64,000 nt of DNA, taken from contig JAFXSG010000013.1 of the NCBI GenBank assembly GCA_017525875.1, positions 64,154-128,153 of the forward strand, given 5' to 3'. Shown here piece after piece: positions 22,761 to 48,929 of this stretch; positions within the stretch are counted from its first letter, which is position 1; each line of letters begins with the position of its first letter. The DNA comes from Clostridia bacterium (GTDB lineage: Bacteria; Bacillota; Clostridia; Christensenellales; CAG-138). Under the pieces are notes generated by a model. That model worked only from the letters and a program-made list of their open reading frames with translations. It was not told the DNA's origin and searched no databases. The translations under genes were made by a program, and so were the position numbers.

Positions 22761-24152
22761 TCAGATGAGGCCCATTGCGATCCTCATGATGGTCATCGCA
22801 TCGTCGATCGCTATTGTACCGTCATTGTTCATGTCGCCTGCGATGAGCGCATCGCCGGTGAGCTGTATAATGCCCATGCCCGCACGCATCGCCGCGATGG
22901 CGTCAGAAATAGTCACCTCTCCGTCGCCGTCCACGTCGCCGGGAATGATCGAGGAAGCATCGGTGAATCTTGCGTTAAACAACGTTTCGGAGGTCGCTGT
23001 AATGGCGTATACGGGATCATTCGAGATGGAAGCGCCCGCGGCATTGAACCAACCCGCGAAGCTGTAGCCGCTTGCAGGAACTGCGCAGACGGTGTTGTCG
23101 AGCTCCGGCATGTATTCATTAACGAGCGCGGTAGCTGCGATCGAGCAGCCGACAGTGCCGCCGTTCTCCGCCCTGACGCGGTTTATGCCTACGCGTGTTG
23201 CGGAAAGATCGATATCTGTCAGCCTGTTGCCGCGGCAGGACAGATAGGAAAGCATCGTGTTAGCGGACAGGTTCAGCGACTGGATGTCGTTGTCGTCGCA
23301 GTTTATCCCGATGATTATCGTGTTTGCGGAGACGTTGAGCTGCGAAAGGTTGTTGTTTTTAACGTTGACGTACTGCAGTCTTGTGAGCTGTGAAAGGTTT
23401 ATAGCAGAAAGACTGTTATTCGGGCAGTAGAGGCCCAGGAGCCTTGACTGCGCGGAAAGATTGAGCGATGAGATGCCGCAGTTCCCGCAGTTCAGCATGA
23501 GCAGATTGGTGAGCGCCGAGAGATTCAGTGAGCCGAGAGCATTGTTGCTTACGCTGAGGTAGCGGAGCTGCTCGTTTGCGGAAAGGCTGAGAGTCGTGAG
23601 TGCGTTGTTGTTGCAGACGAGTGTGTTCAGCTGAGGGTTTGAGGAAACGTTAAGCGAAGAGATGGAGTTCCCGGAGCAGGTCAGCGAGGCAAGGTTTGAA
23701 CACTGAGAAACGTTCAAAGCACTGATTCGGTTGCTCGCGCAGTTCAGGCTGAGCAGCTCCGTGCAGCCGGAAAGATCGAAGCTTCCTACGAGGTCGTTCG
23801 AGAAGCAGGAGATCTCCATGATGCGTCGATCGGTCTGCGCTTCGGTCCAGGTGAAGGTCGTGGGCTGATCGTAGTTGTCGGGGTCGTCATAGCTTCCCGT
23901 TCTGCCCCAGGTGGTAGGATCGCTCGGGTTATAGTTTGTGCCGCATTTTTCGCCGTTCCTTACTCCGTTTTCGTCGCGGAGCTCAAGGAAAGCGGCTACT
24001 TTGTTGTAATCGTGCTGATTGTAGCCCGAGGGGACGGTCCAACAGGGTTCTGCTGTGTTTTCGATATGTGCCGTCAAAGCCGCTGCCGGTATCGAGGCAA
24101 GGGCCATGATGAGCGCGAGTGACGATGCGATCATGATGCGTATCGTTTTCAT
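22761..24152 (-). CDS. Secreted leucine-rich-repeat protein with C-terminal dockerin
   Basis: 463 residues. A signal peptide (MKTIRIMIASSLALIMALAS...) is followed by about 70 residues of unknown fold and then about eleven 21-residue leucine-rich repeats of the form LxxLxCxxNxLxxLNLSxN (roughly residues 125-335). A repeat resembling the InlB B-repeat family (SGYSFAGWFN) comes next. The C-terminus carries two calcium-loop segments, GDVDGDGEVTISDAIAAM and GDMNNDGTIAIDDAMTIM, the two halves of a type I dockerin. Dockerins plug into cohesins on scaffoldins or cell-surface proteins, so this is likely a surface or complex-bound adhesin; no cohesin gene is in the window. The ATG at 24152 is chosen over 24158 because of GGAGG spacing. 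Confidence 0.85.
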   Translation of the reverse strand: MKTIRIMIASSLALIMALASIPAAALTAHIENTAEPCWTVPSGYNQHDYNKVAAFLELRDENGVRNGEKCGTNYNPSDPTTWGRTGSYDDPDNYDQPTTFTWTEAQTDRRIMEISCFSNDLVGSFDLSGCTELLSLNCASNRISALNVSQCSNLASLTCSGNSISSLNVSSNPQLNTLVCNNNALTTLSLSANEQLRYLSVSNNALGSLNLSALTNLLMLNCGNCGISSLNLSAQSRLLGLYCPNNSLSAINLSQLTRLQYVNVKNNNLSQLNVSANTIIIGINCDDNDIQSLNLSANTMLSYLSCRGNRLTDIDLSATRVGINRVRAENGGTVGCSIAATALVNEYMPELDNTVCAVPASGYSFAGWFNAAGASISNDPVYAITATSETLFNARFTDASSIIPGDVDGDGEVTISDAIAAMRAGMGIIQLTGDALIAGDMNNDGTIAIDDAMTIMRIAMGLI

Positions 24153-24249
24153 TGTCATTCCTCCATGGTGTTATTCTGTGCGCCGGACGGTGCCTTAAAA
24201 AGCCTTGCTTTTCCATTCGTAAAGACCGGAAAGCAATTCACTGTTTTGT

Positions 24250-24499: not shown

Positions 24500-26206
24500 A
24501 TGAATACTTTAGACAGATTGAAAAATCGTGCGATATTGAACGCGGTTTCCGCGTACGGAGGGATCTGCCGCAGGAGCTATCTCAACGCCGCAAAGCGTAC
24601 CGACAGGGTGGAAAAGAAGGTGCTCAGCGGCATCCTCAGGCGAAATGCCGATACTGAATTCGGGATCAAAAACCGGTTCCGTGACATACGTACCATCGAA
24701 GACTATCAGGATACGGTTCCCTTCAGCGTCTATTCAGACTACGCGGACTATCTTGATCGCACTGCGATGCGCGGCGAGCAGAATCTCATCACGAGCGACC
24801 GCATATCGTTCCTTGCCGATACCTCCGGCACGACCGGCATAACCAAGCATATCCCCGTCGTTCCCCGCTCCTATGCACCATATCTCGGGTGCATGGCCAT
24901 GTATTTCAACCTGCTTAAAAAGGAGCTGAAGACGCGCGGTCTTCGCGGAGGCAAAGTGCTGAATACGATCGAAAGCGAGAGCTCGGTCACGCCCGGAGGC
25001 ATCCGTCAGGGCTTTATATCCGCTTTTGTCGTCGGCAATTCAAGATTTCTGATCGAGAACGCGACCTGCCTGCCGCTCGAAGTGCTCGGATACGGCGCAA
25101 CGATCGACATGAAGTATATCAAAGCCCGCTGCGCGCTTGCGGAGGCGGAGCTCGTAGGTGCGGTTAGCGCGTTCATGTCCACCGTTACCGATCTGATGTA
25201 TTACATCACCGAAAATCACGAGATGCTCGAGCGCGATATCGCAAGCGGCGGGATCGACGCATCGATCAACATCCCTCCTGAGCTGCGCGCAAGCCTGCGC
25301 CGTCGCTTCAAGCCAGACCCCGAACGAGCGGAAGCGATCAGAAGGGCTTTTTCCTGCGGTACGCACGAGGGCTTAGTTCCGAGGCTTTGGCCCGGGATGT
25401 CGCTTATCGTCGCTATCGGGACCGGTGAATTTGCTCCGTTCGCCGAAAAAATGCGCTACTATTGCGGCGGCAGGGTAAAATTCTGTTATTCGATGTACTG
25501 CGCTTCGGAATCGCTGTTCGCAAGCGCCGTGAACGTAGAGGACGAGAATTATCTGATGCTCGCCCACGCGGGTTTTTTCGAGTTCATACCCGTTGACGAT
25601 GAATTCGATGAAAACACTATGCGCCCGCTGCTGCTGCACGAGCTCGAAGTCGGCAAGCATTACGAGGTAGTCGTAACGAGCCTTGCCGGGCTCTACCGCT
25701 ATCGGATCAACGACGTTATCGTCGTTACCGGTTATGAGGGGAAATCGCCGCTCATCCGCTTTGCGTACAGGAAGAATCAGCTCATTAACATCACCGGCAT
25801 TAAGTTGACGGCGGAGCATATCACAAACGCGATCGCCGGCTTTGAAAAACGCATCGGCGTCAAGGTGCTCGATTACAGCCTGTATCCGGATCTGTCCCGT
25901 GCGCCGTGGCGCATACAGGCTTTTATGGAGCTTGACGGCGAGATCCCGTCCGAGATGCAGTCCTCCGTCCCGTCCGTTTTCGATGAGGAGCTCTCTAAGG
26001 TCAACGCCGAGCACGGGCATATGCTGAAGATCGGCGAGTCCTCTCCTTCCGTCGTTTGTACAGTCGCACGCGGCAGCTACGAACGTTACCGCGCCGAACG
26101 CGCAAAGCAGAAACTATCCGGCAACCAAGTAAAGGCTGTTCGCTATATAGATACTCCGGACAAGCTCGAATACTTTAACTCCTGTGTAGAAAAGGTTTAC
26201 GAATAA
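24500..26206 (+). CDS. GH3-family acyl-acid amido synthetase
   Basis: 568 residues. GH3 enzymes adenylate a carboxylic acid with ATP and transfer the acyl group to an amine, usually an amino acid; plant members conjugate auxin and jasmonate. Motif I is LADTSGTTG (TSGTTG at 108-113), motif II reads YCASES (333-338; plants have YASSE), motif III is LYRYRINDVIVVTGY (about 398-412), where the usual YR(V/I)GD has Asn in place of Gly, and RKNQLINITGIKL (about 424-436) is the hinge. Start: ATG at 24500 with AAGGG four bases upstream; earlier in-frame ATGs at 24440 and 24485 have none. The amidase gene begins one base after its stop. The acyl substrate and the amine are unknown. Confidence 0.85.
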   Translation: MNTLDRLKNRAILNAVSAYGGICRRSYLNAAKRTDRVEKKVLSGILRRNADTEFGIKNRFRDIRTIEDYQDTVPFSVYSDYADYLDRTAMRGEQNLITSDRISFLADTSGTTGITKHIPVVPRSYAPYLGCMAMYFNLLKKELKTRGLRGGKVLNTIESESSVTPGGIRQGFISAFVVGNSRFLIENATCLPLEVLGYGATIDMKYIKARCALAEAELVGAVSAFMSTVTDLMYYITENHEMLERDIASGGIDASINIPPELRASLRRRFKPDPERAEAIRRAFSCGTHEGLVPRLWPGMSLIVAIGTGEFAPFAEKMRYYCGGRVKFCYSMYCASESLFASAVNVEDENYLMLAHAGFFEFIPVDDEFDENTMRPLLLHELEVGKHYEVVVTSLAGLYRYRINDVIVVTGYEGKSPLIRFAYRKNQLINITGIKLTAEHITNAIAGFEKRIGVKVLDYSLYPDLSRAPWRIQAFMELDGEIPSEMQSSVPSVFDEELSKVNAEHGHMLKIGESSPSVVCTVARGSYERYRAERAKQKLSGNQVKAVRYIDTPDKLEYFNSCVEKVYE

Positions 26207-26207
26207 T

Positions 26208-27281
26208 ATGAAAAAGCAGATCCTCAGACGAGCTGAAAGCAAAACGCTCGATACGCTCAAGGTCATCCATCCGGGTATCTTCATGCTCGAATTCAACGGC
26301 GACTACGGACTTGACGAGCTGCTCGGGACCGGAGCCAAGGATATCGCCGGCATGGCGCGCTTCATTCAGAGGAGAACGCGCAGGATCGCTCCTGTCCTCA
26401 ACATGAAGCCCGTCGACTTCGCCTGCTCAGCCTTCAACGTGAGAAACGAGAACGGGAACGTGCTCATGGGCCGCAACTTCGATTACAAGGAGTCGCCCTG
26501 CCTCATCCTGTGGACCCACCCCGAAAACGGCTACCGCAGCATCAACACGCTGACGGTAAATTTCATGCTCTACGGTGTGAAGCACCAACGCCTTGACCGC
26601 CAAAAACGACCGCTGCGCCTCATGGGCGCACCGTACGTCTGCATGGACGGCATGAACGAGATGGGGCTCGCATGCGCGATCCTCGAGATCAAGGCGAGAC
26701 CCACGAAGCAGTCGACCGGCAGGATCCCCGTTATCCCACCTATAATCGTTCGGACCGTCCTCGATAAATGCTCAACGGTCGACGAAGCCATCGAGCAGTT
26801 CAGCAAATATGATATGAACGATCTTATCGGCGTAAACTATCACTATATGCTTGCGGACGCCGAAGGTCGCAGCGCCGTAATCGAATACGTTGACGACAAG
26901 ATCAGCATCATCCGCCCTGCGAAAGAGGGCGATGATACCGTCGTTACCAATTATTTTCTCACCGATGGCGCGGATAACACGAAAGGCCGCGGGTTCGACC
27001 GTTTTGACGACATCAGCGAAAGGCTCTGCGGCTGCGGTCACAGCATGAGCGAGCTTGATGTGATGGAGCTTTTGAGCCGCAACACGCTTTACTATCACCA
27101 CCCGAGGCTTCCGCACATGGTCACGACCTGCTGGAGCAACGTTTTCGATCTTGAAGAAAAGACCTTGCTGAACTGCTGCGGTATGGAATATGCCGAAGGT
27201 TACAAATTCAGCCTTGACAAGCCCTGTGAATACGAAAGGATCAGCACCGGCATCAAATTCGAGAAGAAGGAGCGGCACTAA
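26208..27281 (+). CDS. Choloylglycine hydrolase-family amidase (Ntn hydrolase)
   Basis: 357 residues. The catalytic cysteine is Cys73 in FACSAFNV; Arg89 and Asp92 in GRNFDY follow at the same distances (+16, +19) as in bile salt hydrolases. DGMNEMGLACAILEIK and VVTNYF match further active-site segments. Two differences matter: about 72 residues precede the cysteine, so the enzyme would need to cleave itself to free its N-terminus, and Glu stands where bile salt hydrolases have the substrate-binding Asn of GLNFPG. It hydrolyses a linear amide of unknown identity (bile acid conjugate, acyl-amino acid or similar). No signal peptide is evident. Translation is coupled to the GH3 gene. Confidence 0.85.
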   Translation: MKKQILRRAESKTLDTLKVIHPGIFMLEFNGDYGLDELLGTGAKDIAGMARFIQRRTRRIAPVLNMKPVDFACSAFNVRNENGNVLMGRNFDYKESPCLILWTHPENGYRSINTLTVNFMLYGVKHQRLDRQKRPLRLMGAPYVCMDGMNEMGLACAILEIKARPTKQSTGRIPVIPPIIVRTVLDKCSTVDEAIEQFSKYDMNDLIGVNYHYMLADAEGRSAVIEYVDDKISIIRPAKEGDDTVVTNYFLTDGADNTKGRGFDRFDDISERLCGCGHSMSELDVMELLSRNTLYYHHPRLPHMVTTCWSNVFDLEEKTLLNCCGMEYAEGYKFSLDKPCEYERISTGIKFEKKERH

Positions 27282-27287
27282 TCCCAA

Positions 27288-28010
27288 ATGAAAGCCAATA
27301 CCGAAAAGAAGATCATCCTGAGCGCCAAAGAGCTTTACAAGACCTATGGAAAGGGCGAAGCCGCCGTGCATGCGCTGAATGACGTTTCGCTCGATATTTA
27401 CGAGGGCGAGCTGCTCGCGATCCTCGGCAGTTCAGGCTCCGGCAAGAGCACGCTCCTCAATATGCTCGGCGGAATGGATAAGCCTGACAGCGGCAGCATC
27501 ACCATTGGCGGTCGTGAGCTCAGCGCGCTCAAGGACCGCGAACTGACTCGTTACCGCAAGGACGACGTCGGCTTTGTTTTTCAATCCTTTAACCTCATTG
27601 CCGAGCTCACCGCAAAGGAAAACGTCGCCATGACCGCAGTCGCGGAAAAGGGCGGCGATATCGTGACCGAGATGCTGGAGCTCGTCGGTCTGGGAGCAAA
27701 GCTCGATTCATACCCGACGCAGATGTCTGGCGGTGAACAGCAGCGCGTTTCCATCGCAAGGGCGCTCGCCAAGAACCCGCGGCTGCTGCTCTGCGACGAG
27801 CCGACCGGCGCACTCGATTACGAGACGGGCAAGCAGATACTTATCGCGCTTGAGAAGCTTGTGCGAGATCACGGCAAGACCGTCGTAATCGTTACGCACA
27901 CGCAGGAGATAGGCCGCATGGCCGACCGCGTCATCCGCATGCGCAGCGGCCGCATCATAGAAAGATCCGTCAATGAATCCCCCGTTTCCGCGGAGATCAT
28001 GGAGTGGTAA
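27288..28010 (+). CDS. ABC transporter ATP-binding protein (LolD/MacB type)
   Basis: 240 residues with Walker [11 protein letters not shown]-loop VFQSFNLI, signature [17 protein letters not shown], Walker [13 protein letters not shown] and the switch histidine in [10 protein letters not shown]. It belongs to the group that powers FtsX-like permeases, moving substrates such as lipoproteins, peptides or antibiotics by mechanotransmission. It starts six bases after the amidase and ends three bases before the permease, so the two form one transporter. Confidence 0.92.
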
Positions 28011-28013
28011 GCT

Positions 28014-31000
28014 ATGAGAAGGATGATCCTTCCTATAATCAAAAAATACTGGAAGCTGCTGCTTTCCGCAATGCTTGTTTCCGCGCTCGGCTGCGGTATC
28101 ATGATCGGCATGGGCGGCGCGTACGTTTCCTTTGACAAATCGCTGAACGATTACGTTCACGATAATCTCTATCCCTCTGCCATCATTACGACCGACGTTA
28201 TAAACAGGAGCAGGGCTGAGAGTATCGCGGCTATACCCGGCGTTACTGCAGTAAATACGCGGCTTTGCGGCGACACGGTCATGGTGGACCCCGGTGCAAG
28301 GTATCTCTCCGTCCGCGTTTTTTCCATGAACGACGGCGATCTGCAAAAGTTTCATATTTGGGACAGCTTCGACTGCGGCGATACCCAGTCCGTCATGCTC
28401 GAATACAATTATGCCGTGGACAACAACATTCGCGCCGGCGATATCGTGCGTTTCAAGCTTGGTGAAGAATACAGGAGCTACGTAGTCTCCGCGCTCGTGA
28501 CAGCGCCTGAAACGTTGAGCGTTCAGATCACCGATGATTCCTGGGGCGCGAACCCCGATTTCGGTTTTGCTTATTTCAGCTCCGACCTGCTCGTGAAGGA
28601 GACCGAGAAGGAGCGTGAAAAAGCGCGTGAGGAGCTTGATGAGCGCGGCAGCGAGCTTCAGGACGCCAAGGATGATGCCGACAAGCAGTTCGAAGACGCG
28701 AAAAAGCAGCTCGACGACGCGAAAGCGCTGCTTGAGGAAAGTGAGCAAAACTTTCTCGAGGCAAGATCAGAGGCTGAAGATCAAAAGAAAAAGCTTGCGA
28801 ACGCAAAAAAGACGCTGACCGAAAATCGGCGCAAGCTCGTAAAGAGCATATCCGATCTGAACGCCGCCGAAAAGCAGCTCCGAAGCGGCAAAGCGCAGGT
28901 CGAGGACGCCATTGAAAAGCTCGAGCAGGCGCGGGACGCGCTTGCGCAGATCGACAGAAGCCTTGCGGAGCTGAACGCTTCATACGACGAGCTCACCGCG
29001 GCGAACGTGGTCTCGGCGATCGAGCTGATGCGCGATCTTCCGTCGGATACCCCGCTCGATTCGATCTTCGATGCGCATGCAAGGCTGACCCATTTTCTTG
29101 CGCTTGCCGCCCAATACGGGTTCGAATATGACGAGAACACCCCTCTCAGCAATATAGCTGCGGAACTTAACCTGTTCATCAGCCGTGTGGAAAGCGATTA
29201 CAGCTATCTCAATTCCGACACAGTGCGCGGGCTTATCGAACGCGCACAAAACGGTGAGGATATCAGCGGCGACCCGGAGTATGCTCATCTTGCGGAGGTA
29301 ATCGGCCGCTATGACGACACGCTTCAAAACGGCGGCGATATAGTTACAGCGTACAATAACGCGCTCAACAACGTCACGAGCCTTCATAACGAGATCCGCA
29401 GCAGCCGTATTGTCGAGGCGCTCGCGCTGATGAGCGTCTACGGAGCTGATATGACGCTGGCCCAGGTGAACAGCAGTATGCAGGATCTTCACCGGCTCGT
29501 CGATGCGCTCGAGACGGCAACCGGTTCCCATATCAGGACCGTCGGTCAGCTTATCTATGCGTATAACACGACCAAGACGAGGCTTGAAAACTCCATCGCG
29601 GAGCTGAACAGGCAGCGTGCCGCCATCGTTGCGGAGCTTCAAAAGCAGGGCATTAGCGAAAACCAGATCGGCAGCAAGCTTGCGGAGCTTCGCAGACAGT
29701 CCGCCGATATCGATTCGCAGCTCGCCTCGATCCCGGGCGCGATATCACAATGTGAGGAAGGCATCGCGGAGATCGACCGCCGCATCCCCGAGATCGATGA
29801 AGCGATCGCCCAGATCGATGAACAGCTCAGGGAGGCCGAGCAGCAGCTCAACGACGCGCGAAGCGAGTATTCAAAAGGCGAAGCTGAGTATGAAAAGAGC
29901 CTTGCCGACGCCATGAGTGAGTTCGCCAGCCTGCGCGAAGAGCTTCTCAAGGCATATGCAGACCTTGAAGAAGGCCAGGGCTACGAGGAACTGACCAATC
30001 AGTTCATGCTCTATTTTGATCCCGCTATGGATCAGGCCGGGCTGCTCCGCAGTGCCGAAGAGGCGCTCGGCAGCGACGTCACGATCAAGAAGAGCTTCAT
30101 CTATGAGAATTCCGGCGTCAAGAACCGCATAGATACCAATATTGCTCCGATCGAAACGATGTCCACATTCATGCCGATGGTGTTCTTTATCGTCATTCTG
30201 GTTGTCGTGTTCCTGTTCATGTCCCTTATCATCCGCCAGTGCCGCCGCGAGATCGGCATCCTGCGCGCGCTCGGCTTCTCATCGGGAAGCATACGTCTGC
30301 TCTACTGCGGAGTCGATCTTATCGTTTCGGTCCTTGCCATCATTCTCGGTGTCGCGCTCGGGATCGGAGTTATGCGCTACGTAGGTGGATACTACCGTGA
30401 TTTCTTCCCCCTCCCCTGCTTTGAATACACTTTGAACTGGAGGACGGTCCTGCTCTCCGCGGTCCTTACGATCGCGGTCGGTCAGGCGGCAACGCTGATC
30501 GGCACAACGGTGATCTCCAAGATCTCGCCCTCCGAGGCGATGACCCGTCCCACACCGCAGACCGCGAAGATCCCGAAGTTGATCTCGTTCTTCACTAAGC
30601 GTTCCAAACCGATGGTGAAGTTCAGCATCAGCTCCATGCTGCGCAACAAGGGCAGGTTCCTGTTTTCGGTCATCTGCGTTGCGGCGTCCGTAATGATGAT
30701 CTTCTCTTCGTTTGCGTTCATAACTTCTAAGAACCATATCCTGACGGAGCTTTACACGGACCGCATCCATTACGACTGCCAGATTTTTTTCGACGGGCAG
30801 CCCGGTGACGAAGTGTTAAACAGCCTTGCCGCGCTTCCATACGTTTCAAACGTTCAGAGCCTGCGCTATTACGAGCGTGACGTGGAATTCAACGGCAGGA
30901 CCGCCTCCGCGGTCATAAACGCGACCGAGCCCGGCACGGAGCTCATCAGCATTTTCGGCAGGGACGGAGAACCCATTCCGCTTCCCGGCGACGGTATCAT

Positions 31001-31694
31001 CCTCGAGCGCCATCTTTGCGACGAGCTCGGCGTTAAGCAGGGCGACAGTGTGAGGATCGATGGCACGGAGTTCCGCGTTGAAGCGGTTTCCGAGCAGTCC
31101 GTGAGTCGCTTCCAGTACGTCTCCTCCGAAGAAGCGGATAGGCTCGGCGATACAAGCCTCGGCTGTCTCATACTGAATATCAACGAAGAGGATGAGCAGC
31201 AGCTTCTTTCAAGGCTCACGGATACCGACGATTATCTGTATTCTGTATTCACGAGGCTTTCATATGAGGGCAATGCAAAGGTCTTCCGCACCTATGACAT
31301 CGCGACTATGGTCATCATAGGCTTTGCTGTCATCATCGGCCTGACGATCGTTTACAACACGACGCAGACGAACCTGCTTGAAAGGAAGAAGGAGCTCTGC
31401 GTGCTTCGTACGCTCGGATTCCAGCGCAGCTCCATCTCCGGGAGTTGGTTCGTGCAGAGCGTGCTGCAGTTCATCTGTTCCTGCGCGATCGGTCTCCCCG
31501 TCGGTATCTTCATAGCCAAGGCTGCGCTTTCAAAGCTCAGCACCGAGGGGCGCGAATACGTCTTTGCGAACGGCCCTAAGGAATACGCGCTGACCGTGCT
31601 GATCGTTTTCGCATACATCGTGATCAGCCATATCCTTGCGATGAATTCGCTCAAGCATTGGAACATCGTTGAAGCCGTCAAGGAAAAGGAATGA
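28014..31694 (+). CDS. FtsX-type ABC permease with long coiled-coil extracellular domain
   Basis: 1226 residues, much larger than usual. One helix at residues 13-35 is followed by a large extracellular region. Two long heptad-rich charged stretches (about 195-320 and 530-650; e.g. EREKAREELDERGSELQDAK) flank a globular part. The first FtsX domain (about 715-830; ILRALGFSSGSIRLLY) and second (about 880-1226; VLRTLGFQRSSISGSW) complete the usual two-module permease. The design resembles the YhgE/Pip or SMC-like hairpin of some Gram-positive exporters and Macrolide-type MacB periplasmic stalks; what the coiled coil contacts is unknown. Last gene of the four-gene operon; a terminator follows. Confidence 0.88.
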   Translation: MRRMILPIIKKYWKLLLSAMLVSALGCGIMIGMGGAYVSFDKSLNDYVHDNLYPSAIITTDVINRSRAESIAAIPGVTAVNTRLCGDTVMVDPGARYLSVRVFSMNDGDLQKFHIWDSFDCGDTQSVMLEYNYAVDNNIRAGDIVRFKLGEEYRSYVVSALVTAPETLSVQITDDSWGANPDFGFAYFSSDLLVKETEKEREKAREELDERGSELQDAKDDADKQFEDAKKQLDDAKALLEESEQNFLEARSEAEDQKKKLANAKKTLTENRRKLVKSISDLNAAEKQLRSGKAQVEDAIEKLEQARDALAQIDRSLAELNASYDELTAANVVSAIELMRDLPSDTPLDSIFDAHARLTHFLALAAQYGFEYDENTPLSNIAAELNLFISRVESDYSYLNSDTVRGLIERAQNGEDISGDPEYAHLAEVIGRYDDTLQNGGDIVTAYNNALNNVTSLHNEIRSSRIVEALALMSVYGADMTLAQVNSSMQDLHRLVDALETATGSHIRTVGQLIYAYNTTKTRLENSIAELNRQRAAIVAELQKQGISENQIGSKLAELRRQSADIDSQLASIPGAISQCEEGIAEIDRRIPEIDEAIAQIDEQLREAEQQLNDARSEYSKGEAEYEKSLADAMSEFASLREELLKAYADLEEGQGYEELTNQFMLYFDPAMDQAGLLRSAEEALGSDVTIKKSFIYENSGVKNRIDTNIAPIETMSTFMPMVFFIVILVVVFLFMSLIIRQCRREIGILRALGFSSGSIRLLYCGVDLIVSVLAIILGVALGIGVMRYVGGYYRDFFPLPCFEYTLNWRTVLLSAVLTIAVGQAATLIGTTVISKISPSEAMTRPTPQTAKIPKLISFFTKRSKPMVKFSISSMLRNKGRFLFSVICVAASVMMIFSSFAFITSKNHILTELYTDRIHYDCQIFFDGQPGDEVLNSLAALPYVSNVQSLRYYERDVEFNGRTASAVINATEPGTELISIFGRDGEPIPLPGDGIILERHLCDELGVKQGDSVRIDGTEFRVEAVSEQSVSRFQYVSSEEADRLGDTSLGCLILNINEEDEQQLLSRLTDTDDYLYSVFTRLSYEGNAKVFRTYDIATMVIIGFAVIIGLTIVYNTTQTNLLERKKELCVLRTLGFQRSSISGSWFVQSVLQFICSCAIGLPVGIFIAKAALSKLSTEGREYVFANGPKEYALTVLIVFAYIVISHILAMNSLKHWNIVEAVKEKE

Positions 31695-31760
31695 TCTGTC
31701 CGGTGCTCCCGCCAAGAGTAAGCCCGGCAGATACGATCATATCCCTGAATATGCAAAAAA

Positions 31761-31791
31761 GAAGGAGGGTCGATACCTCCTTCTCGTTTTA
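31761..31791. terminator. Terminator closing the GH3-amidase-ABC operon
   Basis: GAAGGAGG (31761-31768) pairs with CCTCCTTC (31776-31783), then TCGTTTTA. The left side has six A, so it could also stop minus-strand transcripts. Confidence 0.78.
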
Positions 31792-34828: not shown

Positions 34829-37800
34829 TTATTCCGTTCTGAGCGCCGCTACCGGGTCCTTCCTGGCGGCGATACCGGCGGGAATGAGTCCGGAGATCAG
34901 TGTCAGAGCCATGCTGATGAGCACGAGCACGATCGCGGCTTTGGCGGGCAGTATTGCGTTTATTGTCTGTATGCCCGTCAGTTTATGCAGTATCGCGTTC
35001 AGCGGGATACACAAGAGGATTGTGACTCCGATACCGATAAGGCCTGAGAAAAAGCCGATTATCAGCGTTTCCGCGTTGAAAACGGAGGAGATGTTGCGCT
35101 TAGACGCACCGATCGAGCGGAGGATGCCGATCTCCTTCGTACGCTCAAGCACGGAGATATATGTGATGATGCCGATCATGATGGACGAAACGACGAGAGA
35201 GATCGTGACGAATGCGATCAGTCCGTATGAGACGGCGTCGATGATCGTGGTCACGCCGCTCATGAGCAAGGCTACGTAATCGGTGTATTCGATCTTCTTC
35301 TCTTCATCCTGAACGCTTTCGTTATAATCGCGGATCGCGTTCGTGATCTCCTCTTTATCATCAAAGCTGTATGCGTAGAGACTGATCGACCCGGGGAAAT
35401 CAACGTCCACATAGCCGAATTCAGCAAGCCTGTCCGCGAGAGTCGAGCCGGAAACGGTCGAAGGCATGAAGTTGTCGTAATAAGCGGCGAGTTTTTCTGT
35501 ATCGTTCTCCCCCGCCATCAGCTGATCGAACATCGACGCGACGGCGTGATAACCGCTCACCCCGAACAGATCACCGGGGACCGAGTTCTCTCTGATCAGC
35601 TGCATGACCTGCGCGCGTGCAGCTTCTTTATTTCTGGCATTGATAATGGCGGTCACCTGATCGCGCATCAACTGCTTTACTTCATCATCCGAATAATCCG
35701 AAAGATAGCTTTTGATCTCTTCCGGATCCAAGCCGAAAGTTGAGGCTGCAAGCTGCTCGAGAGCCTCGCGTGAAGGATACATCGCAAGGTATCCTTCGAC
35801 CATCCTGTCAAGCTCTGTTTCGTCCGGGATGGCAAGGATATCGGTGTACGTCTCGACCTTCTGCGAATCGTTCATGGAGCTGAAGTATTCCTTGATCTGA
35901 ACAGCTTTTTCTGCGTCGGTCGGGATGTCGTCCTCGTCGAGCACGAAGCTCAGGCCGGTCAAAAGGTCGGTATTCTCATTCTCCGGATCACGCTGCTTTG
36001 TCACGAGCTCGGAGTTGTTGTCATGTTCTATAACGTAGTCGGTCAACAGCTTTGTGTAGCCGAACGCGCCGGAAATCGGCAGCGAACTTTTGGAATTCGG
36101 CTTGATAATTCCGCAGAGGCGAAGCTCCAGCCCGTTTTTCGCAACGAGCCCAAGCGCGGCTTCATCGCCCTCGATGCTTTCATAAAAGCCGCTTCCGTCC
36201 TCCGTCTTTCGGTACATATCGGAATTCAGAACGAGGCGAAACGTCTTACCGAGTAGCTCGTCGAACCTCGCACTGCGAGCGGTCTCTTCAATGGGTTCGT
36301 TCTTCAGAACAGCCTTCAGCATGGCCTGGATCTCGTCTTCCTCGATCATGCCCATTGCGAAAAACGCATTATCACTGGTCTCGCCGTCCTCATTGAGAAT
36401 AAGCACTATGTCCCCCGCCGCCCCGGGCCATTCGCCGGCAAGCAGATCGTACTGTTCCGTGATCATGCTGTGGATCAGTTCACCGTCGTTTCCCTGTATC
36501 AGTTCAGACCAAAGGTTCATCGCGGGCATTCGGGACGAGACCATGTTGAACATACTCATTCCGGTATTGTCGTCGCTGTTTTCGTTCGAACCGAACATGG
36601 CTTTCGAGAGATCGCAGTTGCGATATTTTCCTTCCGCATCCTCGAAAAACACGTTCAGCTTAAGACCGTAATCATAATGGATCGCTTTCACCGTCTCGGA
36701 AAGAGGCTTGCCCGAGCCACCGTCCTCGCTGCCTTGTGCAATTCTTTCCTCAAGATACGTCTTGAATGAAGCAAGATCGTTAGTTTCGCCGCTGCCGGTG
36801 AATGCGGCGTTGAACATTCGGTAGATCCTGGCGTTTGAGTAAACGGTGTTCTCATCGCGCTCAGCTTCATCGTCGTCATTGCTCTCCCTCGCCGCAGCGA
36901 AGCTCGCAAGGAAGTTATTGGGTTCTTTCTCGATCTCCACCGGGTATGAGGCAAGCGTTTCGCGCTGGATGTCGTCGACGTAGTTGTGGATGCCGGTCGA
37001 AAGCGCAAGTATCATCGCAATACCGATGATGCCGATCGAGCCCGCAAACGCCGTCAGGATCGTCCGCCCTTTTTTTGTGCGGAGATTGTTTAAGCTCAGT
37101 GACAGCGCGGTCAGAAACCTCATCGAGGCTTTCTTCTTTTTACCCGTTTTTCCCTCTTTTTTTGTCGATTCTTCTGGCTCTGCGCTGAAAGGATTTGAGT
37201 CGTCTATGATCCTTCCGTCGCGCAGACGAACTACGCGGTTTGCATACTCATCCGCAAGCTCGCCGTTGTGCGTGACCATTATAACCAAGCGATCCTTTGC
37301 GACCTGTTTCAAAAGCTCCATCACCTGAACGCTCGTTTCGGAGTCGAGCGCTCCGGTCGGCTCGTCCGCAAGCAGCACGTTCGGATCGTTCACGAGCGCA
37401 CGCGCGATCGCAACTCGCTGCATCTGTCCGCCGGACATCTGATTGGGTCGTTTATGGAGCTGATCGCCAAGACCGACTGAGGCAAGCGCTTCTTTGGCTC
37501 TTTTGCGGCGTTCCGCGCGGGAAACGCCGGAAATAGTCAGCGCAAGCTCTACGTTCGCCAGGACCGACTGATGCTGTATTAGATTGTAGTTCTGAAAGAC
37601 AAATCCGATCGTATGGTTTCGGTAAGTGTCCCAGTCCCGATCCGAATACTCTTTCGTAGATACCGAGTTGATGATGAGGTCGCCTTCATCGTAGCGATCG
37701 AGACCGCCAACGATATTAAGAAGGGTCGTTTTCCCGGAACCGCTCGGGCCGAGAACGGCAACGAACTCGCTCTCGCGAAAAGCTATGCTCACGTCGTCGA

Positions 37801-37861
37801 GAGCGCGTTGGACGAGCTCCCCCGTTTTATACTGTTTTGAAATGTTTCTCAGTTCAAGCAT
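34829..37861 (-). CDS. ABC transporter, ATPase and FtsX permease in one chain
   Basis: 1010 residues. The N-terminal ATPase (about 1-230) has GPSGSGKTT, FVFQNYNLI, MSGGQMQRVAIARALVN and [12 protein letters not shown] lysine-rich linker (EGKTGKKKKAS) leads to the first permease helix (about 270-290), a roughly 570-residue extracellular domain rich in acidic residues, and three C-terminal helices with TKEIGILRSIGASKRNISSV. ATPase and permease are fused as in MacB, and the very large extracellular domain suggests a peptide or antimicrobial substrate, but no two-component regulator is adjacent. The ATG at 37861 has GGAGG five bases upstream. Confidence 0.88.
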   Translation of the reverse strand: MLELRNISKQYKTGELVQRALDDVSIAFRESEFVAVLGPSGSGKTTLLNIVGGLDRYDEGDLIINSVSTKEYSDRDWDTYRNHTIGFVFQNYNLIQHQSVLANVELALTISGVSRAERRKRAKEALASVGLGDQLHKRPNQMSGGQMQRVAIARALVNDPNVLLADEPTGALDSETSVQVMELLKQVAKDRLVIMVTHNGELADEYANRVVRLRDGRIIDDSNPFSAEPEESTKKEGKTGKKKKASMRFLTALSLSLNNLRTKKGRTILTAFAGSIGIIGIAMILALSTGIHNYVDDIQRETLASYPVEIEKEPNNFLASFAAARESNDDDEAERDENTVYSNARIYRMFNAAFTGSGETNDLASFKTYLEERIAQGSEDGGSGKPLSETVKAIHYDYGLKLNVFFEDAEGKYRNCDLSKAMFGSNENSDDNTGMSMFNMVSSRMPAMNLWSELIQGNDGELIHSMITEQYDLLAGEWPGAAGDIVLILNEDGETSDNAFFAMGMIEEDEIQAMLKAVLKNEPIEETARSARFDELLGKTFRLVLNSDMYRKTEDGSGFYESIEGDEAALGLVAKNGLELRLCGIIKPNSKSSLPISGAFGYTKLLTDYVIEHDNNSELVTKQRDPENENTDLLTGLSFVLDEDDIPTDAEKAVQIKEYFSSMNDSQKVETYTDILAIPDETELDRMVEGYLAMYPSREALEQLAASTFGLDPEEIKSYLSDYSDDEVKQLMRDQVTAIINARNKEAARAQVMQLIRENSVPGDLFGVSGYHAVASMFDQLMAGENDTEKLAAYYDNFMPSTVSGSTLADRLAEFGYVDVDFPGSISLYAYSFDDKEEITNAIRDYNESVQDEEKKIEYTDYVALLMSGVTTIIDAVSYGLIAFVTISLVVSSIMIGIITYISVLERTKEIGILRSIGASKRNISSVFNAETLIIGFFSGLIGIGVTILLCIPLNAILHKLTGIQTINAILPAKAAIVLVLISMALTLISGLIPAGIAARKDPVAALRTE

Positions 37862-37974
37862 GGATGCCTCCATCAGGTTGCTTTTGCTGTTATTATACCA
37901 CCCTCTGACGTGCTCAATCAACGGCTGCACCAAAATGACACAAAACTGCTATTATTCGCGGCCGTCTCCTGAAC

Positions 37975-38043: not shown

Positions 38044-40353
38044 ATGATCACTGCAAGGATAAAACAGATCGCTGCGGGCGTACTGCTCGCACTTATCGCA
38101 ACGATAGTTCTTTCGCCCATCGGGCTTGTTTATGCTGAAACTGCGGAGGTTTCTTCGCTGCTTTCCTCGATGACGACCGAGGATAAGATCTGCCAGATGC
38201 TCGTGCTCAATTTCGGCGCCGTAACTGACTCCGCAGGGCATCAGGTGCTGTCGGGCGCTGCACGGCAGGAGCTCGAGCGTCACTGTTTCGGCGGCGTTTT
38301 GTTCGATGCACAAAGCACTGCTGACAACGAAGATACAGTACGGCTTGTCGATTCGATACAGACAGCGAACGCATCCGGCGGTGCGTCCCGCCCTCAGCTG
38401 CTCTTTGCTGCGGATCAGGAGGGCGGCAGTATCACCCGCCTCGGGCATGGCACACAGACGCCCGGCAATATGGCTTTAGGTGCGATCAACGACGACGCCG
38501 CGGCGAGAAGCGTCGGAAGTCTTATCGGTTCGGAACTCAAAGCGCTCGGCATCAGCGTGGATTTCGCCCCTGTGCTTGACGTCAACAGCAACCCGTCGAA
38601 CCCGGTCATCGGCATACGCTCGTTTTCAGACAGCGCCTGGATGACCGCTTCGCTTGGCGTCAGCTATATGTCCGGGCTGATGTCCACCGGTACCGTTGCC
38701 TGTCTCAAACATTTTCCCGGTCATGGCGATACCGCAACGGACAGTCACACCGGCCTTCCCAGCATCGACAAAAGCTATTCTCAGCTTCAAGGCAACGAAC
38801 TGATCCCGTTCAAAAGTGCGATCAACGCCGGCGCGGAGATGATCATGACTGCGCATATACAATTCCCGCAGATCGAAACCGAGACCTATAATTCCCCTAT
38901 TTCAGGCCAAACGATCACGCTTCCGGCGACGCTGTCAAAAAAGATCATCACCGATATCCTTCGCGGAGATATGGGGTTTCGCGGAGTCGTTATCACAGAC
39001 GGAATGGCGATGGAAGCCCTCACCGCTCATTTCAGCCCGCTCGAAGCTTCGCGCCTTGCGATCGAGGCCGGAGTCGATCTGCTGCTTGCACCCGTCAGCC
39101 CGCATAATTCAAGCGGCATCAGCGCACTTGAAAACCTGATATCGTCCCTTACTGCGATGACCGAGACCGGTCAGCTTTCCATATCAAAGATCGACACCGC
39201 CGTAACGAGGATCCTTAATCTCAAGCAGAGGCACGGGCTTTTGAACCGCTACGATAATTCCGACCTTGCGGCCCGCATACGAAATGCTGTTCAAACCGTT
39301 GGCTCCGATGCGCACCACGCAGCCGAATGGGAGATCACCAAGCGTGCGATCACACTTGTCAAGAACGACGGCGGCGCGCTCCCGCTCATCCGCGCGAACG
39401 AAAAAACCGTTATCCTCACGGCGAGCCAGTCGGAGATACTTTCGGCGGAGTACGCGAAAGCCTTGCTTCAAAGCCACGGAAAACTCGTCTCCGGCTCGAC
39501 TGTGCGCATTTATACTTATGACGGGCAGAGCTATGAGAGCCTTTGCGCGAAGATAGCCGATGCTGATAACGTTATAGCGATCTCGGAGGTCAAGAGCGCA
39601 TCCGGCCTGCGTTCATCAAAGGCGCAGCTCATCTCCTCACTGATCGATTACGTTCACTCGAAGGGTAACCGTTTCATTGTTTTGAGCGCTCATCTGCCCT
39701 ACGATGCGGCGCGGTTTACGACTGCAGACGCGATGATGCTTGCCTATTCGTCCAAATCCATGAACGAGGACCCGCGCGTTACAGAGGGCACCGTAGCCCA
39801 GTACGGGCCGAACATCCCGGCAGCTCTCTATATGATGTTCTCCGCGGTCGACTCTCCGAGCGCCCATGTGCCTGTGAATATTCCGAGGCTGAGTTCAAGT
39901 TATTACTACACGAACGAAACGCTGTACGCGCGCGGCTTCGGTCTGACCTATGCCTCATCACCCGTTCAGCCCGCTCCCTCGCCTGCCGAAACACCGACAG
40001 CGCCCGAGCTGAGCGACGAACCTTTAACCGTCGATCCGGCATTTACCGAACTGCCCTTTGATGACCCGACCGAGTTTCCATCAGATGAGCCAACCGAAGA
40101 GGTCACTGGGCAGCCGGAAACGGAGCAGCCGACCGAGCAGGCGAACTCTTCGGAGCCTTCGGATGCGGACGGAACGGAGCAGCCCGAGCATGAACCCGTT
40201 AACACTACCGATTCAGCAGAGCCCACGCAAGCTCCCACTGGTCCCTCTCCGGGGGCGAAGCGCAGCCTGTCCCCCGCTGTTTGGGGCCCGATCGCCGCGT
40301 GCATCCTTGCCGTCCTCTGCACCGCGACCGCTTTTATCATCCGTAAAAAGTAA
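38044..40353 (+). CDS. Surface-anchored beta-N-acetylhexosaminidase, NagZ type (glycoside hydrolase family 3)
   Basis: 769 residues. A signal peptide (ends near VYAETAEV) precedes the glycoside hydrolase 3 barrel, with RLGHGTQTPGNMALGA, the KHFPGHGDTATDSHTGLP motif that holds the His-Asp catalytic dyad, and the nucleophile aspartate in VVITDGMAM. A second, Rossmann-like domain follows. About residues 640-745 are a Pro/Thr/Glu-rich stalk, and the protein ends in one membrane helix and a basic tail (FIIRKK). It should cleave terminal N-acetylglucosamine from peptidoglycan fragments outside the cell. The enzyme's fixed place at the membrane is less usual; enteric NagZ is cytoplasmic. Confidence 0.88.
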   Translation: MITARIKQIAAGVLLALIATIVLSPIGLVYAETAEVSSLLSSMTTEDKICQMLVLNFGAVTDSAGHQVLSGAARQELERHCFGGVLFDAQSTADNEDTVRLVDSIQTANASGGASRPQLLFAADQEGGSITRLGHGTQTPGNMALGAINDDAAARSVGSLIGSELKALGISVDFAPVLDVNSNPSNPVIGIRSFSDSAWMTASLGVSYMSGLMSTGTVACLKHFPGHGDTATDSHTGLPSIDKSYSQLQGNELIPFKSAINAGAEMIMTAHIQFPQIETETYNSPISGQTITLPATLSKKIITDILRGDMGFRGVVITDGMAMEALTAHFSPLEASRLAIEAGVDLLLAPVSPHNSSGISALENLISSLTAMTETGQLSISKIDTAVTRILNLKQRHGLLNRYDNSDLAARIRNAVQTVGSDAHHAAEWEITKRAITLVKNDGGALPLIRANEKTVILTASQSEILSAEYAKALLQSHGKLVSGSTVRIYTYDGQSYESLCAKIADADNVIAISEVKSASGLRSSKAQLISSLIDYVHSKGNRFIVLSAHLPYDAARFTTADAMMLAYSSKSMNEDPRVTEGTVAQYGPNIPAALYMMFSAVDSPSAHVPVNIPRLSSSYYYTNETLYARGFGLTYASSPVQPAPSPAETPTAPELSDEPLTVDPAFTELPFDDPTEFPSDEPTEEVTGQPETEQPTEQANSSEPSDADGTEQPEHEPVNTTDSAEPTQAPTGPSPGAKRSLSPAVWGPIAACILAVLCTATAFIIRKK

Positions 40354-40411: not shown

Positions 40412-41659
40412 TCAGAGATTCTTTGCCTTCGCGTAGGCGAGGATGCGCTGCATCTCGTTGTAGACGATCATGTAGCCCTCGTCAACGCCCATGCCGGGCT
40501 TTGCAAGGATCTGGTCGGGACGGGTCGCCATAGCGCAGTGTACGCAGACCTGTGCGGAGCGGTCGGTCTCGTTGCAGGTACCGCCCTGATAAGCGCCGAT
40601 GCCGCGCTCTTTGCAGTACAGAACGGCTTCGATCGTGTTATTGATACCGCCGAGGTCGGGGGTCTTGATCTGTACCATATGGCCCGCTTTATTGTCTGCA
40701 AAGTACTTGATATCCTCGAGGGTGTTGCACCACTCGTCAGCTACGATTTCAACGTTGATGCCGCGGTCATCGAGCACCTTGGTGATCGCCTTAAGAGCGA
40801 GCATCTGCTTTTCGCGGTCTTCAACGTCCATGGGGCCTTCGATGCGGAGGTGGAAGGGCTTTGCGGCTTCTTCGAGCTTGGCCATGTAGTCAGCCATTGC
40901 CTCGTAGTTGTCATTGCCGAATGCAGCGCCGATGGTGCCGTAAACGTCGATATGGAAAATGGGGTTGTAGTCCTCGCTGGTGCGCAGCGCAATAACGCGG
41001 TCCCTAAGCCACTTGACGTACTCGAGAAGCAGTTCGCCGTGCTCGCCGAGCTTGGTCTTGACGTTGTTGATGAGTGCGTGAGGCAGGATCTGAGCGCCCT
41101 TGATGATCATCTTGTCGGAGTTGGTATAGCGATCGTCGCCGGACTGGGTGAAGACGTCGAGGGGCTTTGCCTCGAATTTGCAGCCGTACTCATCAGCAAC
41201 GACTTCGAACATCATCCTGTGGGTCGCTTTCGCGACTGCATCGAGGATCGCCTGGGTCATGCCGTAGCGGATCGCGGTGTGCAGGCGTTTGCCCTCAACG
41301 GTGATGGACTCCACGAACTCGGAAAGCTTGCGGAAATTATCAGCCTCCTTGCCGATTAGCTGGGGCTTGATGTATTTTTCGATGATCGGGATAAAGTCCT
41401 TTGCGAGGAACAGCGGGTCGCGGCCGCCGCAGCCGGAATACTGTACGGCAGCGCAGTCGCCCATAGCGATCTGGCCGTCCTCAAGAACGAGCATAACGGA
41501 GATGGATTCGCCGGGCTGGCGGACAGAGGTAAAGCCCGCGGTCTTGGGCTCGCCGAAGTATGCGGCGCCGTCGGACTTTGCGCCTGCTTTGATGGCGCGC
41601 TGATCGTCGAAATAGAAACCGGTGCGTCCTGCGGAGCAGATTACGTCGATGATTTTCAT
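40412..41659 (-). CDS. mal: Methylaspartate ammonia-lyase
   Basis: 415 residues, full length. Removes ammonia from (2S,3S)-3-methylaspartate to give mesaconate. It is an enolase-superfamily enzyme: the catalytic lysine is in MVQIKTPDLGG, and metal ligands lie in FHIDVYGTIG, RIEGPMD and IVADEWCNT. It follows glmE by 29 bases and closes the mutase operon. Third step of the methylaspartate path. Confidence 0.95.
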   Translation of the reverse strand: MKIIDVICSAGRTGFYFDDQRAIKAGAKSDGAAYFGEPKTAGFTSVRQPGESISVMLVLEDGQIAMGDCAAVQYSGCGGRDPLFLAKDFIPIIEKYIKPQLIGKEADNFRKLSEFVESITVEGKRLHTAIRYGMTQAILDAVAKATHRMMFEVVADEYGCKFEAKPLDVFTQSGDDRYTNSDKMIIKGAQILPHALINNVKTKLGEHGELLLEYVKWLRDRVIALRTSEDYNPIFHIDVYGTIGAAFGNDNYEAMADYMAKLEEAAKPFHLRIEGPMDVEDREKQMLALKAITKVLDDRGINVEIVADEWCNTLEDIKYFADNKAGHMVQIKTPDLGGINNTIEAVLYCKERGIGAYQGGTCNETDRSAQVCVHCAMATRPDQILAKPGMGVDEGYMIVYNEMQRILAYAKAKNL

Positions 41660-41688
41660 GATTGTTTTCCTTTCCTTACAATGAATAA

Positions 41689-44515: not shown

Positions 44516-44534
44516 CGTAATCTCATCCCCGAGA

Positions 44535-44951
44535 TCAGTCTTCGATGTGCAGGTCTTCCTTCAGAGCGGCGATATCCACTTCGGGAGCGGTTCCCGGAGG
44601 GAAGGAACGGTCGAAGCCCATCGCTTTGAAGCGCTTCTCAACTTCGTCAAAGGGCTGCTTGCCGATTACGATGTTGCCGCCGACGTACAGCAGAATGCCC
44701 TCGAGGCCGGCTTCGTCGCACTTCTCGCGAAGGCCGCGGCAGTCGAGCTCGCCCTGGCCGTACAGCGAAGAAACGATGATCGCGTCGGCGTTGGTCTCGA
44801 TCGCGGCATTGATGAATTCTTCCTGGGAGACCATGACGCCGAGGTTGACTACGTTGAAACCCGCGTCGGAAAAGGCGTGGTACAGGATCTGGTTGCCGAC
44901 AGCGTGAACGTCTGCACCGATAACGCCGATAACCAAAGTTTTCTTTTCCAT
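44535..44951 (-). CDS. glmS: Methylaspartate mutase, sigma (B12-binding) subunit
   Basis: 138 residues. Rossmann-like B12-binding domain with the DVHAVGN motif (the DxHxxG histidine ligates cobalt base-off), [11 protein letters not shown] and [11 protein letters not shown]. The symbol glmS is also used for glucosamine synthase, a different gene at the right end. The ATG at 44951 has GAGG five bases upstream; the longer reading to 45026 has no site. First gene of glmS-glmL-glmE-mal. Confidence 0.93.
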
Positions 44952-45043
44952 TTTGACCTCACTTTTATTCAAGGTTAATGATCGCAGACCGGAGCATGTT
45001 TTGATAAGAAAAACATATGGCTCCAATCTACTTACTTAGCATT

Positions 45044-45073
45044 ATGGTACTCCGAAACATAGGCTATTGTCAA
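45044..45073 (-). promoter_or_regulatory. Promoter of the mutase-methylaspartase operon
   Basis: Minus strand: consensus TTGACA (45068-45073), 18-base spacer, TACCAT (45044-45049), about 90 bases before the mutase sigma gene. I see no cobalamin riboswitch between them. Confidence 0.6.
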
Positions 45074-45132
45074 GATGTAAGCCGCGAAATAGGTCAATAT
45101 ATTTATTCTTGTATCTATTAAGTTTTTTTGAT

Positions 45133-45160
45133 AAAAAAAGCGGAGGGATCAACCCTCCGC
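45133..45160 (-). terminator. Terminator after the citramalate operon
   Basis: Minus strand: GCGGAGGG, loop, CCCTCCGC followed by seven T (stem 45140-45147 with 45153-45160). It separates the two halves of the pathway into two transcripts. Confidence 0.88.
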
Positions 45161-45166
45161 CGCAGC

Positions 45167-45724: not shown

Positions 45725-45735
45725 GGCTCTCCTCC

Positions 45736-46575: not shown

Positions 46576-46588
46576 TCAGTCCGTCCTT

Positions 46589-48872: not shown

Positions 48873-48929
48873 TTTTACTCCTTCCGCAGCCATAAAAAAG
48901 CTGCGATGTCAGTTTTTGCATACATAGTT

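What the first reader, a model, noticed from the sequence alone, without database searches (positions are those of the whole stretch)
24500..31694. Operon pairing an amide-forming GH3 enzyme with an amide-hydrolysing enzyme and an exporter
Four genes from one promoter to one terminator: GH3-family amido synthetase, then after one base a choloylglycine-hydrolase-family amidase, then an ABC ATPase and a large FtsX-type permease. GH3 enzymes join a carboxylic acid to an amine; choloylglycine hydrolases split such amides. Having both translated together suggests a conjugation/deconjugation cycle, a self-protection pair, or a remodelling system for acyl-amino acids (bile-acid-like or lipid amides), with transport. 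Family functions are known; the combination and the substrate are inference. I know of no named system with this makeup.
Basis: partly seen in the sequence, partly recalled or inferred. Interest (0 to 1): 0.82.

Follow-up and report, generated by a model that had tools for sequence, protein, structure and literature searches.

The report
Rumen operon: amide-maker, amide-cutter, exporter
In some uncultured gut Clostridia, many apparently from the rumen, one conserved gene block encodes an enzyme predicted to join an acid to an amine, a second predicted to break or swap such bonds, and a membrane pump predicted to push the product out; what the product is remains unknown.

Summary
On one strand, 1, 6 and 3 bases apart, lie a GH3 amido synthetase (24500-26206), a C45/choloylglycine-hydrolase-type Ntn enzyme (26208-27281), an ABC ATPase (27288-28010) and a 1226-aa double-FtsX permease (28014-31694). 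It is not confined to one genome: 7 of 8 loci of this GH3 clade have GH3 and C45 within 100 bases; the eighth keeps only GH3 and FtsX. None of 80 other GH3 genes examined has C45 within 100 bases. Both enzymes keep their active-site residues and family folds. Close relatives of GH3, C45 and permease occur in the same 5 of 103 family genomes; a divergent LRR-dockerin gene accompanies 4 of the 5.

Best reading: an operon making and extruding an N-acyl amide (lipoamino-acid-like). GH3 makes the amide, cytosolic C45 hydrolyses or exchanges it, and a MacB/LolCDE-type ABC system extrudes it. Substrates and the direction of C45 are inference. Bile acids are unlikely: five of seven named relatives appear to be forestomach genomes. 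The closest analogues are planctomycete OlsH and the plant GH3-ILR1 pathway; it is a member of neither. New variant of a known kind.

The parts
22761..24158 (-). Divergent secreted LRR protein with dockerin domain; orthologue beside the operon in 4 of 5 family genomes, the window included
   Evidence: Pfam LRR_4, Dockerin_1; 52-65% identity beside the operon in G018, G025, G080, none beside it in G090; next best near-full-length match 38-39% in a large paralogous family, 29 matches in the own genome
24370..24397 (+). Promoter-like site TTGACA-16-TATAGT
   Evidence: 11 of 12 consensus matches; no clear conservation in the upstream alignment of four loci; predicted only
24500..26206 (+). GH3-family acyl acid amido synthetase, 568 aa
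24821..24847 (+). GH3 nucleotide motif 1, TSGTTGITK (residues 108-116; S109 aligns with essential S115 of OlsH)
   Evidence: alignment A4, S109, G110 and K116 invariant in 18 of 18; OlsH S115A inactive
25496..25510 (+). GH3 nucleotide motif 2, YCASE (residues 333-337)
   Evidence: alignment A4; motif as named in PMC12493201
25688..25714 (+). GH3 nucleotide motif 3, GLYRYRIND (residues 397-405)
   Evidence: alignment A4; motif as named in PMC12493201
26208..27281 (+). C45 / choloylglycine-hydrolase-superfamily Ntn amidase or acyltransferase, 357 aa, no membrane segment found
26208..26423 (+). Pro-segment of the C45 enzyme (residues 1-72), expected to be cut off before Cys73
   Evidence: Residues from 20-24 on are aligned in the IAT, acid ceramidase and NAAA rows, whereas BSH and PVA rows start at about 70-73 (50 rows shown); cleavage itself is inferred
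26424..26426 (+). Codon of predicted catalytic, N-terminal Cys73
   Evidence: Aligns with residue 1 of mature Ntn chains
27288..28010 (+). ABC ATPase of MacB/LolD type, 240 aa
   Evidence: ABC_tran 1.3e-37; best NCBIfam LolD 212.6 (cut-off 307.75), MacB 212.1 (cut-off 966)
28014..31694 (+). Double FtsX permease, 1226 aa: eight membrane segments by hydropathy (1+3, 1+3), large coiled-coil-like insert after the first
   Evidence: Two FtsX stretches; hydropathy segments at 15, 722, 769, 812, 882, 1096, 1150, 1192; SMC/Rad50-type matches in the insert
31760..31784 (+). Terminator-like hairpin starting 66 bases after the permease stop
   Evidence: 9-pair stem, weak T-run; such sites are as many as in shuffles

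Best explanation
A production-and-extrusion operon for an N-acyl amide, probably lipoamino-acid-like. GH3 activates a carboxylic acid with ATP and joins it to an amine or amino acid in the cytosol (inferred from family and intact site). The C45 Ntn enzyme, cytosolic and self-cleaving at Cys73 (inferred), hydrolyses amides that are not exported or are wrongly made, so that acid and amine are recycled and the producer is protected. The type VII ABC-FtsX pair extrudes the product from the membrane (inferred). Shown here: genes, active-site residues, predicted folds, co-inheritance. Not shown: substrates, activity, direction.
For: Intact GH3 site and fold; the one bacterial GH3 whose reaction I found in print, OlsH, makes N-acyl ornithine from free fatty acid and ATP. 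Intact Ntn site and fold. Close relatives of GH3, C45 and permease are found in the same 5 of 103 family genomes, the ATPase between them in each. Identities of GH3 and C45 track each other over seven loci, r=0.85, 5 of 5040 permutations. GH3-FtsX is kept in 8 of 8 loci and C45 in 7 of 8, so C45 looks accessory rather than an obligatory step. Elsewhere GH3 genes sit by amide- or lipid-building genes: ATP-grasp ligases at 14 of 80 genes, an ABC, FtsX or MATE gene within 5 kb at 34 of 80, ACP + condensation + AMP-ligase in L229, LPG_synthase_TM and ATP-grasp genes in L142. Nearest non-operon C45 relatives (L098-L100) carry an extra N-terminal hydrophobic stretch, by eye, that the operon ones lack, consistent with a move to the cytosol.
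Against: No substrate evidence. C45-type enzymes can also transfer acyl groups (for BSH), so hydrolysis is not certain. Synthesis plus hydrolysis in one compartment is a futile cycle unless regulated, and the operon has no regulator gene. All six gene pairs of the operon have correlated identities (5 to 144 of 5040 permutations, C45-FtsX higher than GH3-C45), so this shows co-inheritance, not a special GH3-C45 tie. Type VII ABC systems may act in resistance or signalling instead of export (recalled). L139 lacks the ATPase too and is a metagenome assembly, so it may be decayed. L142 departs in motif 1 (TSGTIKVMK). 46 of 80 other GH3 genes have no ABC, FtsX or MATE gene within 5 kb on the same strand, and no background rate for such neighbours was measured.
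Confidence: 0.45

Rival explanations
1. Assembly in series: GH3 makes a first amide and the C45 enzyme, working as an acyltransferase, moves the acyl group to a second amine or hydroxyl, giving the exported product.
Against: L139 keeps GH3 and FtsX without C45, and no C45 match was found in that genome, though the locus may be decayed; gene order is reversed in L142; no second acceptor is evident.
Confidence: 0.22
2. Supply: the C45 enzyme frees acids from imported or membrane amides and GH3 re-conjugates them (head-group exchange or detoxification).
For: No membrane segment in either enzyme, so both are probably cytosolic; solved relatives by sequence and fold are bile salt hydrolases and penicillin V acylases, which act on outside amides (recalled).
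Against: No importer in the operon; type VII ABC pairs are not importers (recalled); low scores to BSH and PVA models, 33.9 of 350 and 21.2 of 600 bits.
Confidence: 0.15
3. The ABC-FtsX pair is a resistance or sensing module of BceAB/MacB kind, and GH3 plus C45 modify an antibiotic or host lipid rather than make a product for export.
For: Type VII ABC systems often act so (recalled).
Against: This permease goes with the operon: over 60% identity only in the five operon genomes of 103, next best by E-value 25%; GH3-FtsX neighbours in 8 of 8 loci, and with a divergent GH3 in L190.
Confidence: 0.13

Closest known systems
OlsH/OlsI ornithine-lipid pathway of Singulisphaera (PMC12493201)
   Same: Bacterial GH3 in an operon; three GH3 motifs, essential motif-1 serine conserved
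   Different: OlsH model score 121.8 of 620 bits; the partner there is an alpha/beta-hydrolase O-acyltransferase, here a C45 Ntn enzyme and ABC-FtsX
Plant GH3-ILR1/ILL auxin conjugation and release (PMC8608799)
   Same: A GH3 that forms an amide paired in function with an enzyme that can split it
   Different: The partner here is an Ntn enzyme, not an ILR1/ILL amidohydrolase; the genes share a predicted operon with a transporter; substrates unknown
C45/CBAH Ntn family: isopenicillin N acyltransferase, penicillin V acylase, bile salt hydrolase, acid ceramidase, NAAA
   Same: Fold; catalytic Cys, Arg, Asp, Asn, Arg; pro-segment aligned with IAT, acid ceramidase and NAAA
   Different: 14-24% identity in those alignments; no membrane segment or exported form seen; below BSH and PVA equivalog cut-offs; partner of a GH3
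Type VII ABC systems MacB, LolCDE, BceAB
   Same: ABC ATPase plus FtsX domains
   Different: Single 1226-aa permease with two FtsX units and a large coiled-coil-like insert; below LolD and MacB cut-offs

Membership tests
GH3 acyl acid amido synthetases | GH3 N, middle and C domains | tested here: met
   214.3, 83.7 and 41.1 bits, cut-off 23.6 each
GH3 acyl acid amido synthetases | Three nucleotide-binding motifs | tested here: met
   TSGTTGITK, YCASE, GLYRYRIND; motif pattern
GH3 acyl acid amido synthetases | GH3 fold | tested here: met
GH3 acyl acid amido synthetases | ATP-dependent amide formation | not testable with these tools
   Needs enzyme assay
OlsH lyso-ornithine lipid synthetase | NF052613 equivalog cut-off | tested here: not met
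   121.8 of 620 bits
OlsH lyso-ornithine lipid synthetase | olsI (alpha/beta hydrolase) in the same operon | tested here: not met
   Operon genes are C45, ABC, FtsX
OlsH lyso-ornithine lipid synthetase | Preference for ornithine | not testable with these tools
   Needs enzyme assay
C45 / CBAH Ntn enzymes | Family profile above curated cut-off | tested here: met
   PF02275 59.5 of 20.4; NF040521 101.6 of 85
C45 / CBAH Ntn enzymes | Catalytic Cys, Arg, Asp, Asn, Arg | tested here: met
   C73, R89, D92, N248, R265 invariant in 12 of 12; their assignment to catalytic positions of BSH is recalled
C45 / CBAH Ntn enzymes | Autocleavage that frees the N-terminal Cys | not testable with these tools
   Needs mass spectrometry
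Bile salt hydrolase | bile_salt_hydro equivalog cut-off | tested here: not met
   33.9 of 350 bits
Penicillin V amidase | PenVAmdYxeL equivalog cut-off | tested here: not met
   21.2 of 600 bits
Acid ceramidase / NAAA | Pro-segment and catalytic domain of that arrangement | tested here: inconclusive
Type VII ABC (FtsX) systems | ABC ATPase plus FtsX-domain permease | tested here: met
   Pfam; eight hydropathy segments
LolCDE / MacB | LolD or MacB equivalog cut-off | tested here: not met
   212.6 of 307.75; 212.1 of 966
Plant GH3-ILR1 cycle | Release of the acid by an ILR1/ILL amidohydrolase | tested here: not met
   The partner gene matches only CBAH and AAT in Pfam

The most novel reading that the evidence does not exclude
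A two-enzyme amide assembly line not described in the papers found here: GH3 spends ATP to load an acyl group on one amine, and a tightly coupled cytosolic Ntn enzyme exchanges or edits the head group without ATP, giving an N-acyl amide that a dedicated coiled-coil type VII ABC system extrudes. The cassette moves between gut Clostridia as a unit, with an LRR-dockerin surface protein at part of the loci.
Probability: 0.2. Interest if true: 0.8.

Novelty: new variant of a known kind. Interest (0 to 1): 0.56.

Why it matters
One BLAST search with OlsH gave more than 7500 bacterial hits (PMC12493201), yet OlsH is the only bacterial GH3 whose function I found in print in these searches. A conserved operon that ties GH3 to an amide-cutting enzyme and an extruder gives a small, expressible system in which the product of a Clostridial GH3 could be found by mass spectrometry. 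If it is an N-acyl amide, it would be a further route to a class of lipids that the OlsH authors note as described from Bacteroidetes and gut Clostridia, in animals where such lipids could reach the host.

Tried and rejected
A single-sequence scan of the named genome collection gave none; the five-row profile gave seven loci. A search of 396 genomes of the order added no further operon (7 matches). No viral contig was confirmed to encode a relative. Plasmids hold only distant GH3s, 22-29% identity in the eight rows shown of ten records. Upstream DNA of four loci shows no clear shared promoter. Bile-acid reading rejected as unlikely. OlsH membership rejected. No DNA-level boundary of the cassette was sought. 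Literature: searches listed no paper on a GH3-C45 pair or a GH3-ATP-grasp cluster; several used loose terms, listings were capped, and most subscription papers are not held.

Limits. The survey of GH3 genes is not a census, and its neighbour tests used my own profiles (ATP-grasp and MATE by a few query proteins), so they can miss members. Sources: all 9 other matching genomes and the 4 new ones; 39 of the 42 non-window matches (two fragments in G693 and one weak match in G641 left out); 13 of the 32 other matching genomes; one stretch each from 20 of the 38 other matching genomes. L203 was left out because it repeats L142; GH3 matches under 60 bits were dropped. Some loci may be one genome under two handles (L082 and L200 share contig length and score). 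One exception: L092 has a weak C45-type match (31.5 bits) 2.6 kb from a weak GH3-like ORF (91 bits). The kinship of L138, L139 and L142 is not told by the tools; labels them Oscillospiraceae, presumably from the record name. Gene starts in L020 and L022 were trimmed by homology, so a few begin after the likely start.
Full report
OBSERVATION. The window holds four tight genes on the + strand: GH3 24500-26206, C45/CBAH 26208-27281, ABC 27288-28010, FtsX 28014-31694, with gaps of 1, 6 and 3 bases. Pfam gives all three GH3 domains, CBAH and AAT for the second gene, ABC_tran, and two FtsX stretches. NCBIfam puts the second gene in the C45 autoproteolytic acyltransferase/hydrolase subfamily above its cut-off, and far below the bile salt hydrolase and penicillin V amidase cut-offs. 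A promoter-like site at 24370 and a hairpin at 31760 fit a single transcript but are weak evidence.

CONSERVATION. In the window's family, Pfam GH3 matches 10 of 103 genomes. Five of the ten hold close relatives (the window itself and four at 51-70% identity): G000, G018, G025 of one genus, G080 and G090 of another. The window's C45 protein matches 8 of 103 genomes; only the same five hold close relatives (54-66%), the other three at most 32%. The permease matches 82 of 103, but over 60% identity only in the same five, next best by E-value 25% over the C-terminal part. In all five the four genes stand in the same order and strand. A scan of a named collection with the five-row profile gave seven loci. 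Four have the contig lengths of G018, G080, G090 and G025 and repeat them; L138 has all four genes in order; L142 has C45-GH3-ABC-FtsX; L139 has GH3 and FtsX 115 bases apart with no C45 or ABC between or beside them on its 8.5-kb contig, and no C45 match in its genome. So C45 lies within 100 bases of GH3 in 7 of 8 loci, and in 0 of 80 other GH3 genes at 72 loci; one of those 80 has a weak C45-type match 2.6 kb away. The operon type is rare: in the families of L142 and L138, 33 of 297 and 39 of 300 genomes have a GH3 match, but only the two starting genomes reach the score of this clade. I take these to be other families than the window's, since more than 300 genomes are held for that of L138 and 103 for the window's; this is an inference.

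TREE AND CO-INHERITANCE. In a tree of 18 GH3s the eight operon GH3s form one clade, support 99/100. Inside it G025 groups with G090 of another genus (100/100), while the window and G018 group with G080 (87/80, weaker), so gene and genus groupings disagree, which points to transfer or to duplication and loss. GH3 and C45 identities agree across seven loci, r=0.85, 5 of 5040 permutations; all six gene pairs agree to some degree (5 to 144 of 5040), C45 with FtsX at r=0.93, so this speaks for a co-inherited block rather than for a special tie of two genes. Window against G018: dN/dS 0.13 GH3, 0.20 C45, 0.08 ABC, 0.18 FtsX.

A FIFTH GENE AND THE SITE. A divergent secreted LRR-dockerin protein (22761-24158) has a 52-65% orthologue beside the operon in 3 of the 4 other family genomes. 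It belongs to a large paralogous family whose next best near-full-length member is 38-39% identical, with shorter stretches up to about 51%. Of the window's other flanking proteins compared, none has a clear counterpart beside the operon in L018, L019, L020 or L022. In G022 of the same genus, priA and rubrerythrin are followed after about 1.2 kb by the relative of 34829-37933; the operon and the two genes after it are not in that stretch, and of the LRR gene there is only a 56-residue match. In G018 and G025 the operon lies on other contigs than priA, so its place differs between species of one genus.

WHAT OTHER GH3 GENES SIT BESIDE. Of 80 other GH3 genes, 14 have an ATP-grasp ligase, 16 a second GH3 and 34 an ABC, FtsX or MATE gene within 5 kb on the same strand; 46 have none of the three transporter types; no background rate was measured. 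L229 has GH3 with a carrier protein, a condensation domain, an AMP-ligase and a protein with a sub-threshold PapA_C match. L224 has a DUF819 gene and a PLP decarboxylase. L142, of the operon clade, has LPG_synthase_TM and ATPgrasp_ST genes just upstream. L190, a more distant GH3, also has an ABC-FtsX pair and an ATP-grasp gene. This is guilt by association for amide or aminolipid building and export, not proof.

MECHANISM. Most likely GH3 makes an N-acyl amide from a free acid and ATP, C45 cuts or swaps such amides in the cytosol, and ABC-FtsX extrudes the product. GH3 and FtsX being kept in 8 of 8 loci and C45 in 7 of 8 suggests that C45 is accessory (recycling, proofreading or self-protection), but the eighth locus also lacks the ATPase and may be decayed. 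Bile salt hydrolase is known to work also as an amine N-acyltransferase (abstract), so an exchange role for C45 is a serious rival. Bile acids are unlikely substrates: of seven named relatives one is titled sheep omasum and four bear RUG names, which I recall as rumen uncultured genomes; two titles do not tell a source.

KNOWN OR NEW. The enzyme families are known; the combination was not found in print. The two nearest systems are OlsH/OlsI (abstract, three results sections and the first of two parts of the discussion read) and the plant GH3-ILR1 pathway (abstract read). It works like parts of both and is a member of neither. I file it as a new variant of a known kind.

Noticed in passing
window 40412-48893 (-): Methylaspartate-pathway genes of glutamate fermentation: methylaspartate ammonia-lyase, MutE, MutL, a B12-binding protein, CitF and a CitE-like lyase.
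   Followed up: partly
window 52064-52274 (+): T-box leader just above its gathering score (93.3 of 93 bits), ahead of a valyl-tRNA synthetase gene at 52284-54977.
   Followed up: partly
window 51355-51561: About fifteen 12-base tandem repeats (GAACCGATCCCC) inside a zinc-ribbon protein ORF 50912-51961.
   Followed up: no
window 38044-40353 (+): A glycoside hydrolase family 3 gene: also abbreviated GH3, unrelated to the GH3 amido synthetase.
   Followed up: yes
window 34829-37933 (-): A second, single-chain ABC-FtsX fusion protein just past the operon; its relative stands next to the priA-rubrerythrin pair in G022, which lacks the operon.
   Followed up: partly
window 22761-24158 and elsewhere in the genome: LRR-dockerin proteins form a large family: 29 matches in this genome and matches in 85 of 103 family genomes. 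Whether a scaffoldin exists was not looked for.
   Followed up: partly
L064, L065, L067, L072, L076, L077, L078, L191: Recurrent cluster of one or two GH3 genes, ATP-grasp ligases and ABC half-transporters: a candidate uncharacterised biosynthetic cluster type.
   Followed up: partly
L190-L197: Other GH3 genes lie by MATE exporters, SpoIIE phosphatase and STAS-type regulators (Pfam for proteins of L190, L191 and L192; others by eye).
   Followed up: partly
L229, L231: GH3 beside a carrier protein, a condensation domain and an AMP-ligase (Pfam for L229; L231 by eye).
   Followed up: partly
L139 2282-7732: GH3 directly followed by the FtsX permease, without C45 or the ATPase: natural variant or decay.
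   Followed up: partly
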